Under the pieces are notes generated by a model. That model searched no databases and was not told where the DNA came from. It worked only from the letters and a program-made list of their open reading frames with translations. The translations under genes and the position numbers were made by a program. DNA of 64,000 nucleotides from Streptomyces sp. CB01881 (GTDB lineage Bacteria > Actinomycetota > Actinomycetes > Streptomycetales > Streptomycetaceae): positions 6,064,349 to 6,128,348 of the forward strand of contig NZ_CP026498.1 of NCBI RefSeq assembly GCF_002953255.1, read 5' to 3'. This document shows, piece after piece, positions 1-7,893 of the stretch; positions within the stretch are counted from its first letter, which is position 1, and each line of letters begins with the position of its first letter.

Positions 1-1710
1 GACCAGCCGGACCGGCTCCCAGCGCGGGTCCCGGTGGCCCGCGCCGAGGGCGAGCACCTCGCCGCCGACCGTGCGGACGGTGAACCCGTCGCCGGTGCCG
101 GTGACGAGCGCCTCCCCGCCCCCGGTGAGGGTGAGCCGGCCGAGGGTCGGCAGGTGCAGGGCGCCCTCCCGGACCGGGACGGCCACGGCGTCGCCCCGCC
201 CGGCCCGGACGGCCGCGGCGCCGGCCAGCTCGGCCAGCCGCCCGAGCCCGGCGCCGGGGTCGCCGCCGAGCCTCCGGGCCGCCCAGGCCCGGGCGTACGG
301 GTGGCCGAGCACCGTGTCCAGCGCGGCCGGTGCGGCGGAGTCGAGGTCGGCGAGGAGGTCCCAGGCGGCCGAGGAGCGCAGCCCGGAGGTGCCCCGGACG
401 GCCGCCAGCATCGCCCGGGTGAGGGCGAGTTGGGAGCGGACGAGGGCCCGGACGGTGTCCGCGTCGCCGTGGCCGCGGGCCAGCTGGCCGAGCTGGCGGT
501 CGGTGAGGCCGGCGGGCACGGCCGGCTCGCCGGCCTGCGCGGGAACGGCCTGGCCGGCTGCCGCCCGCGGGGCCGTGCCGGCCCCGGGGTCCGGCTCGCC
601 GCGGTCGGCGATGCCGTTGATGAGTGTCATGAGATCCCCGCAGTAGACGGAGGGGTTGTCGAATCCACCATCGGCCCGGTAGCGGTGGGCGTACAGACCG
701 CCACCGCAGGAGCGGACGACGGGGCAGCCGCGGCAGGTGGCGCTCAGGCCGGCCAGCCCGGACTGCCGGGCGGCCATGCCGGGGTGCCGGGCGACCTCGT
801 CCAGGCTGTGCCGGAAGACGTCGAGGCCGGTGGCGGGAGCGCCGTCGTACGCGGTCTTCAGGCTGTCGGCCTGCTCGAACGTGCCGTCGGTCTCCAGCAC
901 CACCAGTGCGGCGGGCTCCAGGCCGAGCGACTCGGTGAGGCTGGAGAGCCCGTGCAGGGTGCGGTGGACCGAGTCGAAGGTCCGGACGGCGAACGGCCGG
1001 CCGTCCTCCTCCCAGTGGTCGTAGACGGCCAGCAGCCATGCGGCGTACGGGTTCTCCCCCTGGCCGGCGGGGCGTCTCGGCGGCTGCTCCCAGGTGGCGT
1101 GCGGGAGCAGGAAGTCGACGGCCGGGGGCTCCAGTGCGGCCAGTGCGCGGTAGACGGCGGCCGGGTCGTTGTCGACGTCGACGGTGCAGAGCAGGCCGGC
1201 GTAGAGGTGCCGGTACCCGGGCCGGCGGAGCAGGGCCACCGCCCGCAGCACCTGGGGGTGGCTGCTGCGGCCGTCGGCGAACCGGCGGTGCCGGTCGTTG
1301 GCCGCGCGGTCGCCGTCCAGGGAGACGCCGACCTTGATGTCCTGCTGGTCGAAGAGGTCGCAGAAGGCGGGGCTCAGCAGCACCCCGTTGGTGTGGATCC
1401 GCAGGTCGAGCGCACAGCCGGGCGGGAGTGCGGCCCTGAACTCCTCGGCGGCACGGCGCAGTCGGTCCGGGCCGGCCAGCAGGGGCTCTCCCCCGTGCAG
1501 GACGACCCGGACGACGGTGAGGCCGTGGGCGGCCGCGTGCTCGCCGATCCGTTCGGCGGCCTTGGCCAGGACCTCGTCGCCGATGACCTTGGGCCGGGCG
1601 CGCCAACTGGTGTCGGCGTGCTCGTAGACGTAGCAGTGGTCACAGGCGAGATCGCACCGGCTGTGGACCTTCACAACGAACTGCGTGAACGGAAGCAGGG
1701 ATCGCGTCAT
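1..1710 (-). CDS. fxsB: FxsB-family radical SAM/SPASM peptide maturase (partial, 3' end outside window)
   Basis: Radical S-adenosylmethionine enzyme expected to form a cyclophane-type crosslink on the FxSxx-COOH precursor peptides encoded beside it. The first 570 codons are present and the C-terminus lies beyond base 1. The radical SAM CxxxCxxC motif is visible at C19, C23 and C26 (RCDLACDHCYVYEH), and a SPASM-type cysteine cluster (CRGCPVVRSCGGG) follows near residue 325. It is the last gene of a minus-strand cluster, 41 bases after fxsA2. The ATG at 1710 has no convincing ribosome binding site, so it may be translated from read-through or start nearby. The family call is firm; the substrate assignment is by context. 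Confidence 0.9.
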   Translation of the reverse strand, partial: MTRSLLPFTQFVVKVHSRCDLACDHCYVYEHADTSWRARPKVIGDEVLAKAAERIGEHAAAHGLTVVRVVLHGGEPLLAGPDRLRRAAEEFRAALPPGCALDLRIHTNGVLLSPAFCDLFDQQDIKVGVSLDGDRAANDRHRRFADGRSSHPQVLRAVALLRRPGYRHLYAGLLCTVDVDNDPAAVYRALAALEPPAVDFLLPHATWEQPPRRPAGQGENPYAAWLLAVYDHWEEDGRPFAVRTFDSVHRTLHGLSSLTESLGLEPAALVVLETDGTFEQADSLKTAYDGAPATGLDVFRHSLDEVARHPGMAARQSGLAGLSATCRGCPVVRSCGGGLYAHRYRADGGFDNPSVYCGDLMTLINGIADRGEPDPGAGTAPRAAAGQAVPAQAGEPAVPAGLTDRQLGQLARGHGDADTVRALVRSQLALTRAMLAAVRGTSGLRSSAAWDLLADLDSAAPAALDTVLGHPYARAWAARRLGGDPGAGLGRLAELAGAAAVRAGRGDAVAVPVREGALHLPTLGRLTLTGGGEALVTGTGDGFTVRTVGGEVLALGAGHRDPRWEPVRLV

Positions 1711-1751
1711 GGTCAGTCGTTTTCAGCCGGAGCCGATGGTCGATCGGCTGG

Positions 1752-1934
1752 TCAGATGGAGGAGTTGAAGGCCGCGACCGGCACCAGACCGGTATCGGAG
1801 CCTGGCAGGGCGCGTCGGAGTCGCGTGGCCAGCTCGTCGGCCCCGAGCGAGGCCAGATCGGCCAGGGTCGGCCGGTCCGACTGGTGATGATCCGTCAGGT
1901 CAAGCTTGGGCTTGGTGTCCAGTGCGGGTGTCAT
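1752..1934 (-). CDS. fxsA: FxSxx-COOH precursor peptide (second copy, ends FNSSI)
   Basis: A 60-residue precursor peptide. It begins MTPALDTKPKLD, has the conserved leader block RPTLADLASLGADEL, and ends AAFNSSI, which fits the FxSxx-COOH signature exactly (F, any, S, any, any, stop). The ATG at 1934 is preceded by GGAAGAG at good spacing; an upstream in-frame extension lacks this support. It lies between fxsT and fxsB and is the likely substrate of the radical SAM enzyme, with the crosslink expected to involve the Phe and Ser near the C-terminus (family knowledge). The other precursor of the cluster (7708-7893) is clearly different in sequence. Confidence 0.85.
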   Translation of the reverse strand: MTPALDTKPKLDLTDHHQSDRPTLADLASLGADELATRLRRALPGSDTGLVPVAAFNSSI

Positions 1935-1977
1935 GTTCGATTCTCTTCCACGATGGGGGTTAGAGAGAGCCGACTCC

Positions 1978-6216: not shown

Positions 6217-7613
6217 CGTTCGGAGTCTCCTTCGCGGGGCTCCCGGGGAGCCGGGGGCAGGGCTGCTTCAGGGGACACTGCCGGCGGCCACGCCGGGATC
6301 AACAGGGCAGGCATGGCCGCGACGCCGGGGCCCAGGCCGAACGCAGCCCGCGCGAGAACCGGATCGACTTCGTCCGTCTCGTCTAACAGTCGATTCTGGG
6401 CAACCGTAACGGTACGTAGCAGGTCCGTTTCGAAGCGTTCCCGCGGGACGCGCACCTTAAAGAGCGGCTCCGGCCCGGACCTGTGCAGCCAGTTGCGCGG
6501 GAAGACGTCGCGCACCCCTCCCCAGAGCCTGCTGCGCGCCGGTCCCTCGGGCGGGTCGTCGGTGCCGGCCGGCACCAGCACGCCGGTGACGGGGTGGTTC
6601 TGGTCGTCGAAGTCGCGCAGCGCCTGCCGGTAGGGCTCGGCGCCGGCCGCCCACGGGTCCACCAGCAGGACGCTGACCTCGTTGTTCTCGCGGGCGAGGT
6701 CCAGGCTGGCGGCCAGGCCCGGGCCGACCTCCTCCAGCGTGGTGCTGTGGCCGGCCTGGGTGATCGCCTGCTGGGCCTGCACCACCAGCGAGGGCAGCCG
6801 CGGCGGGTGGTAGGGCGCCCAGTCCCTGGGCCGGTCCCCGTACCAGCCGCCCCGGTACCGGTCCTCGTCCTGCCGCTGCGCCGGGATGCCGGGCACGGCG
6901 TACACGGCGGCGTCGGCCGTCCGCCCCCCGGCGCGGGACGGGTCGGCGGTGCGGCGGGCGGCCGCGCGGCCGGCGGCGACGAAGATCCGGACCATCCCGC
7001 TGCGCCCGGGCGGCGGCACGGCGTCCGGCACCGGGAAGCAGCCGTCCACCCGGCCCAGGTCGAGGTGGGGCAGCTCGGTCAGGGGCAGGCAGGCCGCCTC
7101 CCGCACCCGCTCGGCGATGGCCCGGACCACCCGGCGGTAGTCGGGTCCGTGCGGGTCGGCCCGCAGGAGGTCGCGCAGCCCGCCGGTGGCGTACGCCACG
7201 CCCAGGTCGTGCTGGCTGTACTGGATCCGCAGCACCTCGGCGGGCAGGCCGGCCGGGGGCGGCTCCCAGACCACCGGGATCAGGGCCGGCACCGCCTCGC
7301 CGGTCAGCTTCTGGTGCCGCCGCATCCGGCCGTCGAAGGCCGTCCACTCCTTGCCGCAGTACGAACTGGCGAAGTAGGCCGGGGAGTAGAGCGCCACCAT
7401 GGTGCGGCTGACGGCCAGCATCCGGGAGAGCTGTTGCTCCCAGTCGTCGCCGACGCGCAGCCGTTCGGTGTCCCGGTAGGCGAGTTCGCCCGGCCCGGCC
7501 GCGGGCTCGATCCGGGCCAGCTCGTCCCGGAGGTCGCTGAAGAACTGGTCGACGAAGGCGCCGCCGGCCATGTGGTCCCGCCGCGCATAACTGAAGAAGA
7601 AGTACGGCCGCAC
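6213..7613 (-). CDS. fxsC: TIR-like protein FxsC
   Basis: About 466 residues. The N-terminal domain starts RPYFFFSYARRDH and runs through a TIR/SEFIR-like fold to YSPAYFASSYCGKEW, which matches the SxxCxxE catalytic-loop pattern of TIR NAD-consuming enzymes with its glutamate intact. A second Rossmann-like part follows (VRIFVAAGRA, then VSVLLVDPW near residue 320). The chosen start is GTG 7613, directly before the conserved RPYFFFSY block; GTG 7631 is possible, and neither has a strong ribosome binding site. It lies between fxsA1 and fxsT and overlaps fxsT by 4 bases. The family call is good; enzymatic activity is unproven. Confidence 0.82.
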   Translation of the reverse strand: MRPYFFFSYARRDHMAGGAFVDQFFSDLRDELARIEPAAGPGELAYRDTERLRVGDDWEQQLSRMLAVSRTMVALYSPAYFASSYCGKEWTAFDGRMRRHQKLTGEAVPALIPVVWEPPPAGLPAEVLRIQYSQHDLGVAYATGGLRDLLRADPHGPDYRRVVRAIAERVREAACLPLTELPHLDLGRVDGCFPVPDAVPPPGRSGMVRIFVAAGRAAARRTADPSRAGGRTADAAVYAVPGIPAQRQDEDRYRGGWYGDRPRDWAPYHPPRLPSLVVQAQQAITQAGHSTTLEEVGPGLAASLDLARENNEVSVLLVDPWAAGAEPYRQALRDFDDQNHPVTGVLVPAGTDDPPEGPARSRLWGGVRDVFPRNWLHRSGPEPLFKVRVPRERFETDLLRTVTVAQNRLLDETDEVDPVLARAAFGLGPGVAAMPALLIPAWPPAVSPEAALPPAPREPREGDSER

Positions 7614-7707
7614 TGCACCCCCCGGTCCCACCCCACCAACTCGGCTTAAGATACCGGTGAGTTGACGCAAAAGGAGCCGGGATCCAGGAAGATCCCAGCT
7701 CGTTGGG

Positions 7708-7893
7708 TCACGCCGCGGAGGAGAATCTGGCCACCGGGACGGCGCAGGACCTTCCCTCCTCCACTCCCGTCCGGCGCAGCAGCGCGCCGAGATCGGCCGC
7801 CGACATGCCGGCCAGCTCGCCCAGGGTCGGCCGGCGGGGGGCGTCGCCCGGGTCGGCGGGCCCGGCGGCGATAGGTGCGGCGGTGTCATCCAT
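7708..7893 (-). CDS. fxsA: FxSxx-COOH precursor peptide (first copy, ends FSSAA)
   Basis: A 61-residue peptide beginning MDDTAAPIAAG and ending VARFSSAA, again an exact FxSxx-COOH terminus. It shares RPTLxELAxxxAxxLxxLLRR with the second precursor but little else. The ATG at 7893 follows GTGAGG at 6 bases, a better start than an upstream in-frame one. It is the first gene of the cluster, 94 bases ahead of fxsC, so substrate and TIR-like protein probably share a transcript. It contains one Cys (C50), absent from the other precursor. Confidence 0.83.
   Translation of the reverse strand: MDDTAAPIAAGPADPGDAPRRPTLGELAGMSAADLGALLRRTGVEEGRSCAVPVARFSSAA

What the first reader, a model, noticed from the sequence alone, without database searches (positions are those of the whole stretch)
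1..7893. RiPP maturase, TIR-like protein and NLR-like STAND protein in one cluster
Two short precursor peptides and a radical SAM enzyme are linked, with stop-start coupling between fxsC and fxsT, to a TIR-like protein and a 1352-residue ParA/TIR-like/NB-ARC/TPR protein. A TIR effector plus a STAND sensor with TPRs is the parts list of NLR-type immunity. The small modified peptide could be the signal, ligand or inhibitor. The Fxs families are named, but the role of the combined system is not established.
Basis: partly seen in the sequence, partly recalled or inferred. Interest (0 to 1): 0.82.

Follow-up and report, generated by a model that had tools for sequence, protein, structure and literature searches.

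The report
Peptide-linked NLR/TIR module with pore gene
A Kitasatospora-type bacterium carries a gene cluster that makes a small cross-linked peptide next to a plant-NLR-like sensor and a TIR enzyme; its relatives usually keep a predicted membrane-pore gene nearby, so it looks like a bacterial immune or cell-fate switch whose core was described in 2020 but whose pore partner seems new.

Summary
The listed parts are real. On the minus strand lie fxsA1, fxsC, fxsT, fxsA2 and the start of fxsB; fxsC and fxsT overlap by ATGA. The coordinates cut the cluster: fxsB runs off the window, and an AAC(3)-like gene, fxsC2 and fxsT2 follow. The core is known: NCBIfam has the Fxs families, and Kaur et al. 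2020 (PMC7159879) described stand-alone FxSxx systems with an AP-ATPase plus inactive MinD/ParA domain and predicted a conflict role.

Added here: (1) FxsC models as two TIR folds; the first keeps a catalytic-type Glu in 50 of 50 aligned sequences; the second and FxsT's TIR-like region do not. (2) FxsT models as an NLR-type NBD-HD-WHD (Z 22.8 to NRC1). (3) In two genomes FxsC's first TIR is fused straight onto FxsT. (4) A tandem SLATT gene (predicted pore effector) tracks FxsC: 107 of 115 FxsC-positive versus 2 of 85 other family genomes; one copy is in the window (20446-21477). (5) Tandem fxsC-fxsT pairs have separate precursors.

Best reading: an NLR-like sensor tied to the FxsA peptide switches on a TIR enzyme acting through the SLATT protein. 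Activity, trigger and phage defence are not shown; the locus is a stable chromosomal one.

The parts
7708..7893 (-). fxsA1, precursor peptide of the upstream module, 61 aa, C-terminus ARFSSAA (FxSxx-COOH)
   Evidence: not detected by NCBIfam
6213..7631 (-). fxsC1, two TIR folds (residues 8-182 and 211-413 counted from GTG 7631); Glu95 in CGKEW
2158..6216 (-). fxsT1, 1352 aa NLR-like STAND protein
5554..6150 (-). FxsT KGGTGR variant ParA/MinD-like domain (residues 23-221)
   Evidence: KGGTGR[TS] in 42 of 44 aligned FxsT rows, the other two lacking the region
4807..5148 (-). FxsT TIR-like domain (residues 357-470); Ile at the column of the catalytic-type Glu
4147..4560 (-). FxsT NB-ARC (residues 553-690), Walker A GMGGVGKS, Walker B LLVFDN
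3655..3921 (-). FxsT DUF7779 (residues 766-854), within the modelled HD/WHD part
2164..3330 (-). FxsT tetratricopeptide repeats (about residues 963-1351)
1752..1934 (-). fxsA2, precursor peptide of the downstream module, 60 aa, C-terminus VAAFNSSI
1..1710 (-). fxsB, 5' part: radical SAM/SPASM cyclophane maturase fused to an aKG-HExxH hydroxylase domain (HEFQH intact); continues to genome 6063611
20446..21477 (-). tandem SLATT_3+SLATT_1 gene (predicted 2TM pore-type effector), one of two in this genome, on either side of the fxs locus

Best explanation
An intracellular NLR-like surveillance or cell-fate switch. FxsB cross-links (and here probably hydroxylates) the C-terminus of FxsA. FxsT is the NLR-type hub: NB-ARC switch, TPRs that read the mature FxsA tail or a target guarded by it, and a TIR-like domain without the catalytic-type Glu that recruits FxsC. 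Once FxsT is triggered it assembles FxsC, whose first TIR (Glu95) cleaves NAD+; the nucleotide signal or the NAD loss acts through the nearby SLATT membrane protein. In this genome the cassette is duplicated: each fxsC-fxsT pair has its own fxsA, and one fxsB appears to serve both. Shown: gene content and order, fold assignments, residue conservation, an FxsC-FxsT fusion in two relatives, co-occurrence with SLATT. Inferred: NAD cleavage, assembly, peptide as ligand, SLATT as downstream effector, purpose (anti-phage, or programmed arrest in a mycelial organism).
For: Families over curated cut-offs. FxsC TIR1: Z 12.7 to AbTir (rmsd 2.5, 131 aligned), also SPARTA and SARM1 TIRs; TIR2: Z 9.9 to BtpA (rmsd 2.8, 122 aligned). 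Glu95 in 50 of 50 aligned FxsC and in all 46 rows of an earlier set in which one gene is present twice; it aligns with the Glu at position 86 of the Roq1 chain (weak, E 0.16). FxsT: no Glu at that column in 44 of 44 rows; NBD-HD-WHD Z 22.8 to NRC1 (310 aligned, rmsd 3.7), 20.8 to Apaf-1, 16.4 to a STAND protein with TPR sensor. In G330 and G310 one ORF joins an FxsC TIR1 (CGKEW/CGREW) to the FxsT TIR-like-NB-ARC-TPR part, without TIR2 and KGGTGR domain: a natural fusion of the two partners in TIR-NLR layout. SLATT_3: strong matches in 107 of 115 FxsC-positive versus 2 of 85 other genomes, lying on different sides and strands of the cassette; in another family, G095, a SLATT protein sits just upstream of fxsA-fxsB. 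FxsC modules are fused to VMAP/MoxR-linked proteins.
Against: No activity is shown. Nine of 44 FxsT rows, the window's included, have Glu one column before the expected place, so a shifted active site is not excluded. The site is stable in the genus (18 of 20 loci with core flanks), FxsC is common (111 of 200 family genomes over cut-off), without a match in phage records and in 5 plasmid records only: more like a housekeeping or developmental locus than a mobile defence system. In the class sample only 3 of 11 FxsC-positive genomes have SLATT_3 and 4 of 11 SLATT_1. In the window's genome other genes lie between the SLATT genes and the cassettes. Two of 40 FxsC loci lack FxsB and long FxsT. PADLOC matches only the KGGVGR domain and, weakly, FxsB as viperin. 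Genomes of one family are related, so Fisher values overstate independence.
Confidence: 0.45

Rival explanations
1. A developmental or population-level signalling system: the modified FxsA peptide is an intracellular or shed pheromone read by FxsT's TPRs, and FxsC/SLATT set growth arrest or programmed death in the mycelium, not phage defence.
For: High prevalence and stable chromosomal site; no match in phage records. TPR proteins often read peptides in Gram-positive bacteria (recalled).
Against: FxsC module shared with VMAP/MoxR conflict systems, also on plasmids; SLATT and TIR partners are described for conflict systems (Kaur 2020 passages; PMC9503650 passage).
Confidence: 0.3
2. An ordinary RiPP (triceptide) natural-product cluster, with FxsT/FxsC as regulators and the AAC(3)-like enzyme as self-protection or peptide acylation.
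For: FxsB belongs to the cyclophane-forming family; a radical SAM enzyme MscB joins Phe C4 to Ser C-beta (PMC11002830 passage), which would fit FxS; fused rSAM-HExxH enzymes make cyclophanes and beta-hydroxylate (Morishita et al. 2024, seen only as cited in PMC12636437). AAC(3)-like gene in 28 of 40 loci.
Against: In the window's genome no other gene was called between fxsC1 and fxsC2, so no transporter or leader peptidase is inside the cassette; flanking transporters were not examined. Long FxsT accompanies FxsC in 38 of 40 loci chosen for FxsC.
Confidence: 0.15
3. FxsC and FxsT TIR domains are scaffolds only; no NAD chemistry.
For: Two of the three TIR-type domains lack an invariant Glu.
Against: Cys92 and Glu95 of TIR1 are invariant in 50 of 50.
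Confidence: 0.2

Closest known systems
Stand-alone FxSxx peptide-processing system with AP-ATPase and inactive MinD/ParA domain (Kaur, Burroughs, Iyer, Aravind 2020, PMC7159879; section 24 and passages read)
   Same: FxSxx precursor, radical SAM-SPASM enzyme, zincin-like HExxH domain, AP-ATPase with MinD/ParA-like domain, actinobacteria, predicted conflict role.
   Different: The section and passages read do not mention FxsC's second TIR, a missing Glu in the AP-ATPase's TIR, SLATT in this system (SLATT appears there for GTPase-centric systems) or paired precursors; figures and source data were not seen. HExxH proteins fused to radical SAM are now described as aKG hydroxylases, not peptidases.
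VMAP-MoxR-vWA ternary systems
   Same: A short FxsT and FxsB lie beside VMAP-C in L077; FxsC occurs as the C-terminal part of a large protein beside VMAP and MoxR/AAA genes.
   Different: No MoxR, vWA or VMAP gene was called within the window's cassette.
Plant NLRs, Apaf-1, bacterial STAND proteins
   Same: NBD-HD-WHD fold and repeat-type C-terminus.
   Different: Extra KGGTGR domain; TIR-like domain without the Glu; a separate TIR protein; a RiPP pathway attached.
AbTir, SPARTA and SARM1 TIR domains
   Same: TIR1 fold and a Glu in CxxE.
   Different: Activity untested; tandem TIR.
ChlBH-type fused rSAM-HExxH enzymes (as cited in PMC12636437) and the triceptide maturase MscB (PMC11002830 passage)
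   Same: Domain layout of FxsB; Phe-Ser cyclophane chemistry.
   Different: Product of this FxsB unknown.
TIR-SLATT pairs in Firmicute phages (PMC9503650, one passage read)
   Same: TIR next to SLATT.
   Different: No NLR or RiPP genes in that passage.

Membership tests
FxSxx-COOH (Fxs) system | FxsB TIGR04269, FxsC NF040588 and TIGR04276, FxsT NF040586 over curated cut-offs | tested here: met
FxSxx-COOH (Fxs) system | Precursor over the TIGR04268 cut-off | tested here: not met
   fxsA2 18.7 bits, cut-off 28; fxsA1 no match. The FxSxx C-terminus itself is present in both.
FxSxx-COOH (Fxs) system | Cyclophane on the FxSxx core | not testable with these tools
   needs mass spectrometry
STAND/NLR | NB-ARC with Walker A/B and NBD-HD-WHD fold | tested here: met
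   Walker A Lys in 44 of 44 rows
STAND/NLR | C-terminal sensor repeats | tested here: met
   TPR_12, TPR_10; that they sense anything is not tested
STAND/NLR | Ligand-triggered oligomerisation | not testable with these tools
   -
TIR NADase (FxsC TIR1) | TIR fold | tested here: met
   Z 12.7, rmsd 2.5, 131 aligned
TIR NADase (FxsC TIR1) | Catalytic-type Glu | tested here: met
   50 of 50; placement against solved TIRs by sequence is weak
TIR NADase (FxsC TIR1) | NAD+ cleavage | not testable with these tools
   -
TIR NADase (FxsT TIR-like) | Catalytic-type Glu | tested here: not met
   Glu at the column in 0 of 44 rows; one column earlier in 9 of 44
Known PADLOC defence system | Models of a complete system match | tested here: not met
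   PDC-M28B to the KGGVGR domain and a weak viperin match to FxsB; on 47 other window genes TmtA, PDC-S07 and CSD_V models, one member each
Classical defence island | Variable flanks rich in defence or mobile genes | tested here: not met
   in the window's genus 18 of 20 loci keep at least one of three core flank genes; no enrichment statistic was run and other genera were not scored

The most novel reading that the evidence does not exclude
A bacterial NLR pathway whose receptor is keyed to a ribosomal cyclophane peptide made by its own operon, with an active tandem-TIR enzyme and a nucleotide-gated SLATT pore as output, and with duplicated sensor/peptide pairs diverging like paired immune receptors.
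Probability: 0.25. Interest if true: 0.9.

Novelty: new variant of a known kind. Interest (0 to 1): 0.6.

Why it matters
If right, a modified peptide would be an internal ligand or licence for a bacterial NLR, with a TIR enzyme and a pore as its output. That makes a predicted but, as far as my searches show, untested class of actinobacterial systems testable through one residue (Glu95 of FxsC), one P-loop (FxsT), one peptide tail (FxSxx) and one membrane partner (SLATT). The FxsC-SLATT coupling is a concrete new lead.

Tried and rejected
Classical defence island: not supported. FxsT as a second NADase: Glu missing at the column, with the off-by-one caveat above. HExxH as a leader peptidase: such domains fused to radical SAM are now described as aKG hydroxylases. 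Of 44 FxsB ORFs, the 35 of at least 700 aa were examined (9 shorter pieces dropped): the HExxH pattern is found in 20 (one, L045, may be a chance match) and the radical SAM CxxxCxxC pattern in 34, so hydroxylation is probably optional. The alpha/beta-hydrolase gene as an irrelevant flank: it tracks FxsC too (106 of 115 versus 5 of 85) and may belong; not pursued. Breaks in FxsT2 and FxsT3 as programmed frameshifting: they fall at nearly the same place, but FxsT3 reads N there (gap or masking), so a sequence artefact is more likely.

Sampling. The 40 loci were chosen for an FxsC match. The FxsC alignment has 50 rows: of 59 FxsC hits ten were left out (partial, overlong, split, a copy of the window gene, or simply not entered: L031, L036, L064) and the window gene was added; most of the omitted ones show the Glu, L064 was not looked at. 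FxsC-positive means E 1e-30 or better (115 genomes, 111 over the curated cut-off). Five weak SLATT_3 genomes (G151, G153, G167, G169, G252) were set aside; with them the table is 109 of 115 versus 5 of 85. The distance count uses the 150 SLATT_3 places listed and the FxsC places listed, both capped: 120 of 150 within 20 kb of a listed FxsC, 10 more at 21-27 kb, 4 far away on the same contig, 16 with no listed FxsC on their contig. In the class sample one SLATT genome counted as FxsC-negative, G079, has an FxsC match below cut-off.

Papers. Searches were searches; I saw listings (one search lists 30 of 107, 25 of 33, 30 of 121). The other two papers with 'FxSxx' were checked: PMC12734244 only carries the name as a fungal gene annotation, PMC8618054 has an unrelated motif. 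So Kaur 2020 is the only one found that treats the system; subscription papers are mostly not in the library, and its figures and supplements were not seen. Foldseek alone gave weak E-values for FxsC; the Z-scores are from the VIA second look.
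Full report
Observation. All genes of the finding lie on the minus strand. In order of transcription: fxsA1 (7893-7708), fxsC (about 7631-6213), fxsT (6216-2158), fxsA2 (1934-1752), fxsB (1710, off the window). FxsT and FxsC pass their curated family cut-offs, as does FxsB when read whole from the genome. The fxsC stop and the fxsT start share ATGA. The window is G000:C1:6064349-6128348 of an 11.3 Mb genome. Contigs of same-genus genomes have the lengths of named Kitasatospora contigs (G254 and Kitasatospora sp. SUK 42, G230 and K. 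indigofera, G214 and K. aureofaciens, G251 and K. xanthocidica), so the genus is Kitasatospora by inference.

What the coordinates cut. Past the window start, fxsB ends at genome 6063611 as an 815-aa fusion of a radical SAM/SPASM maturase and an aKG-HExxH domain. Then follow an AAC(3)-like acetyltransferase, fxsC2 and fxsT2; fxsT2 is broken by a frameshift in this assembly. In 40 loci chosen for FxsC in other genomes the usual cassette is fxsA-fxsB-(AAC3)-fxsC-fxsT: FxsB in 38 of 40, long FxsT in 38 of 40, AAC(3) in 28 of 40, and an FxSxx ORF just before FxsB in 30 of 40 by a pattern search that can miss some. A minority have a different layout with fxsB on the other strand (L025, L026, L027, L029). 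So the window holds one extra module, fxsA1-fxsC1-fxsT1, and the beginning of the canonical one.

Paired precursors. The same layout (fxsA1-fxsC1-fxsT1-fxsA2-fxsB) is seen in G230, G328 and G254. In L061-L064 and L067 the upstream module carries its own split fxsB, so loss of that fxsB in the window's genome is the simplest reading. In the nine tandem loci the downstream precursor ends VAAFNSSI; the upstream ones found end RFSSAA, LFQSSI, RFQSSI, RFSSAI, AFQSAL and AFQSSL (six loci; in L063, L064 and L067 none was found in the stretch by the pattern). That one fxsB serves both modules is inferred.

FxsC. A model from 50 sequences (mean pLDDT 79.6) gives two domains. Residues 8-182 are a TIR: Z 12.7 to AbTir (rmsd 2.5, 131 aligned), 12.4 to a SPARTA TIR, 10.3-10.7 to SARM1 entries. 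Residues 211-413 are a second TIR fold: Z 9.9 to BtpA (rmsd 2.8, 122 aligned), 9.6 to PdTIR. Foldseek alone was weak. Cys92 and Glu95 are invariant in 50 of 50; the second domain has no invariant Glu in the comparable stretch. A profile alignment puts the Glu on the Glu at position 86 of the Roq1 chain, with a weak E-value of 0.16. That this Glu is the catalytic residue of TIR NADases is recalled; one listed PDB title names E100A of RUN1 as a mutant bound to NAD.

FxsT. Its TIR-like region passes Pfam TIR_2, but no row has Glu at the column before the conserved Trp (0 of 44; Leu 18, Val 14, Arg 4, Ala 3, Ile 2, others 3); nine rows, the window's among them, have Glu one column earlier, so an off-by-one is possible. 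KGGTGR[TS] is in the 42 rows that cover it, and the NB-ARC Walker A Lys is in 44 of 44. A model of FxsT residues 351-850 (mean pLDDT 81.7) matches the NRC1 NB-ARC with Z 22.8 (310 aligned, rmsd 3.7), NRC2 21.4, Apaf-1 20.8, and a STAND protein with TPR sensor 16.4. So the HD and WHD are there. A shared fold shows no function.

Fusion. In G330 (L065:3927-7592) and G310 (L066:11377-15045), in the upstream module, one ORF of about 1220 aa begins with an FxsC-type TIR that keeps CGKEW or CGREW and runs into the FxsT TIR-like region, NB-ARC and TPRs, without FxsC's second TIR and without the KGGTGR domain. This natural fusion is the best evidence that FxsC and FxsT act as one device, and its layout is that of a TIR-NLR.

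SLATT. Downstream of the cassette is a gene with SLATT_3 and SLATT_1 domains (L009:7818-8753); a second is in the window at 20446-21477. SLATT_3 is rare: 6 of 148 genomes of the class; the two copies of the window's genome lie on either side of the fxs locus. In 200 genomes of the family, strong SLATT_3 matches are in 107 of 115 FxsC-positive and 2 of 85 other genomes (Fisher 5e-44); outside the window's genus 43 of 51 versus 2 of 85 (this table assumes that all sampled genomes of that genus are among those listed). Because genomes are related these values are not independent tests. But the position varies: same strand after fxsT (L021, about 70 bases apart; also L032, L033, L036), divergent before fxsB (L022, L031, L037 and others), or behind the alpha/beta-hydrolase gene (L034, L035 and many of the window's genus). 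In G095, of another family, a protein with SLATT_1 over and SLATT_3 just under cut-off sits just upstream of fxsA-fxsB. In the class sample SLATT_1 is in 4 of 11 FxsC-positive genomes and 4 of 137 others (Fisher 0.001). Eight of the 11 FxsC-positive genomes there have no SLATT_3, so the coupling is a feature of the family, not of all Fxs systems. The hydrolase gene tracks FxsC too (106 of 115 versus 5 of 85).

FxsC elsewhere. On two actinobacterial plasmids an FxsC-annotated protein of 1337 or 1566 aa follows a VMAP gene and a MoxR/AAA ATPase gene; the window's own genome has a VMAP-C gene followed by a very long frame that ends in FxsC. FxsC is thus a module shared with VMAP ternary systems. 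Short FxsT loci without FxsC have VMAP-C (L077) or an nSTAND1 protein (L071). FxsC has no match in the phage records and five in the plasmid records.

Against a phage-defence label. In the window's genus 18 of 20 loci keep PNPOx-, citrate synthase- or aminotransferase V-like flank genes, FxsC is common (111 of 200 over cut-off), and PADLOC finds no complete system nearby. A developmental or programmed-death role is a real rival.

Known and new. Kaur et al. 2020 (section 24 read; passages) already described stand-alone FxSxx systems with an AP-ATPase and an inactive MinD/ParA domain and suggested that the peptide is a toxin or signal. In what I read, SLATT is linked to GTPase-centric systems, not to this one. 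PMC9503650 (one passage) notes TIR-SLATT neighbourhoods in phages. A review passage (PMC11002830) reports a radical SAM maturase, MscB, that joins Phe to Ser, the chemistry FxS would allow. My additions are the tandem TIR with one conserved Glu, the Glu-less TIR-like domain and NLR module of FxsT, the natural FxsC-FxsT fusion, the SLATT coupling, the paired precursors and the FxsC modules in VMAP loci. Mechanism: the NLR-like hub FxsT, keyed to FxsA, assembles FxsC; FxsC makes an NAD-derived signal or depletes NAD; SLATT opens. Every one of these steps is inference from anatomy.

Noticed in passing
window 21959-23293 (+): Protein with T7SS_signal and CdiA_C toxin-type domains, next to the window's SLATT gene.
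   Followed up: no
L009 (fxsT2) and L011 (fxsT3): fxsT2 is frameshifted and fxsT3 interrupted at nearly the same TPR position; the two proteins are near-identical there, so a sequence artefact is likely.
   Followed up: partly
L065:3927-7592 (+) and L066:11377-15045 (-): Single ORFs that join an FxsC TIR1 to the FxsT TIR-like-NB-ARC-TPR part.
   Followed up: partly
L069:3261-10668 (G000): A VMAP-C gene followed by a very long frame ending in an FxsC module, in the same genome.
   Followed up: partly
L009:8848-9738 (+): Alpha/beta-hydrolase gene that co-occurs with FxsC in 106 of 115 versus 5 of 85 genomes.
   Followed up: partly
L021-L060, FxsB proteins: HExxH pattern missing in 15 of 35 long FxsB while the radical SAM motif stays in 34 of 35.
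   Followed up: partly
L070-L075, L080: Short FxsT genes divergent from fxsB with a neighbouring gene family; its member in L071 is an nSTAND1 protein with weak TPR matches.
   Followed up: no
window 15257-15355: ARAGORN reports an odd tRNA-like hit without a proper anticodon, probably spurious.
   Followed up: no
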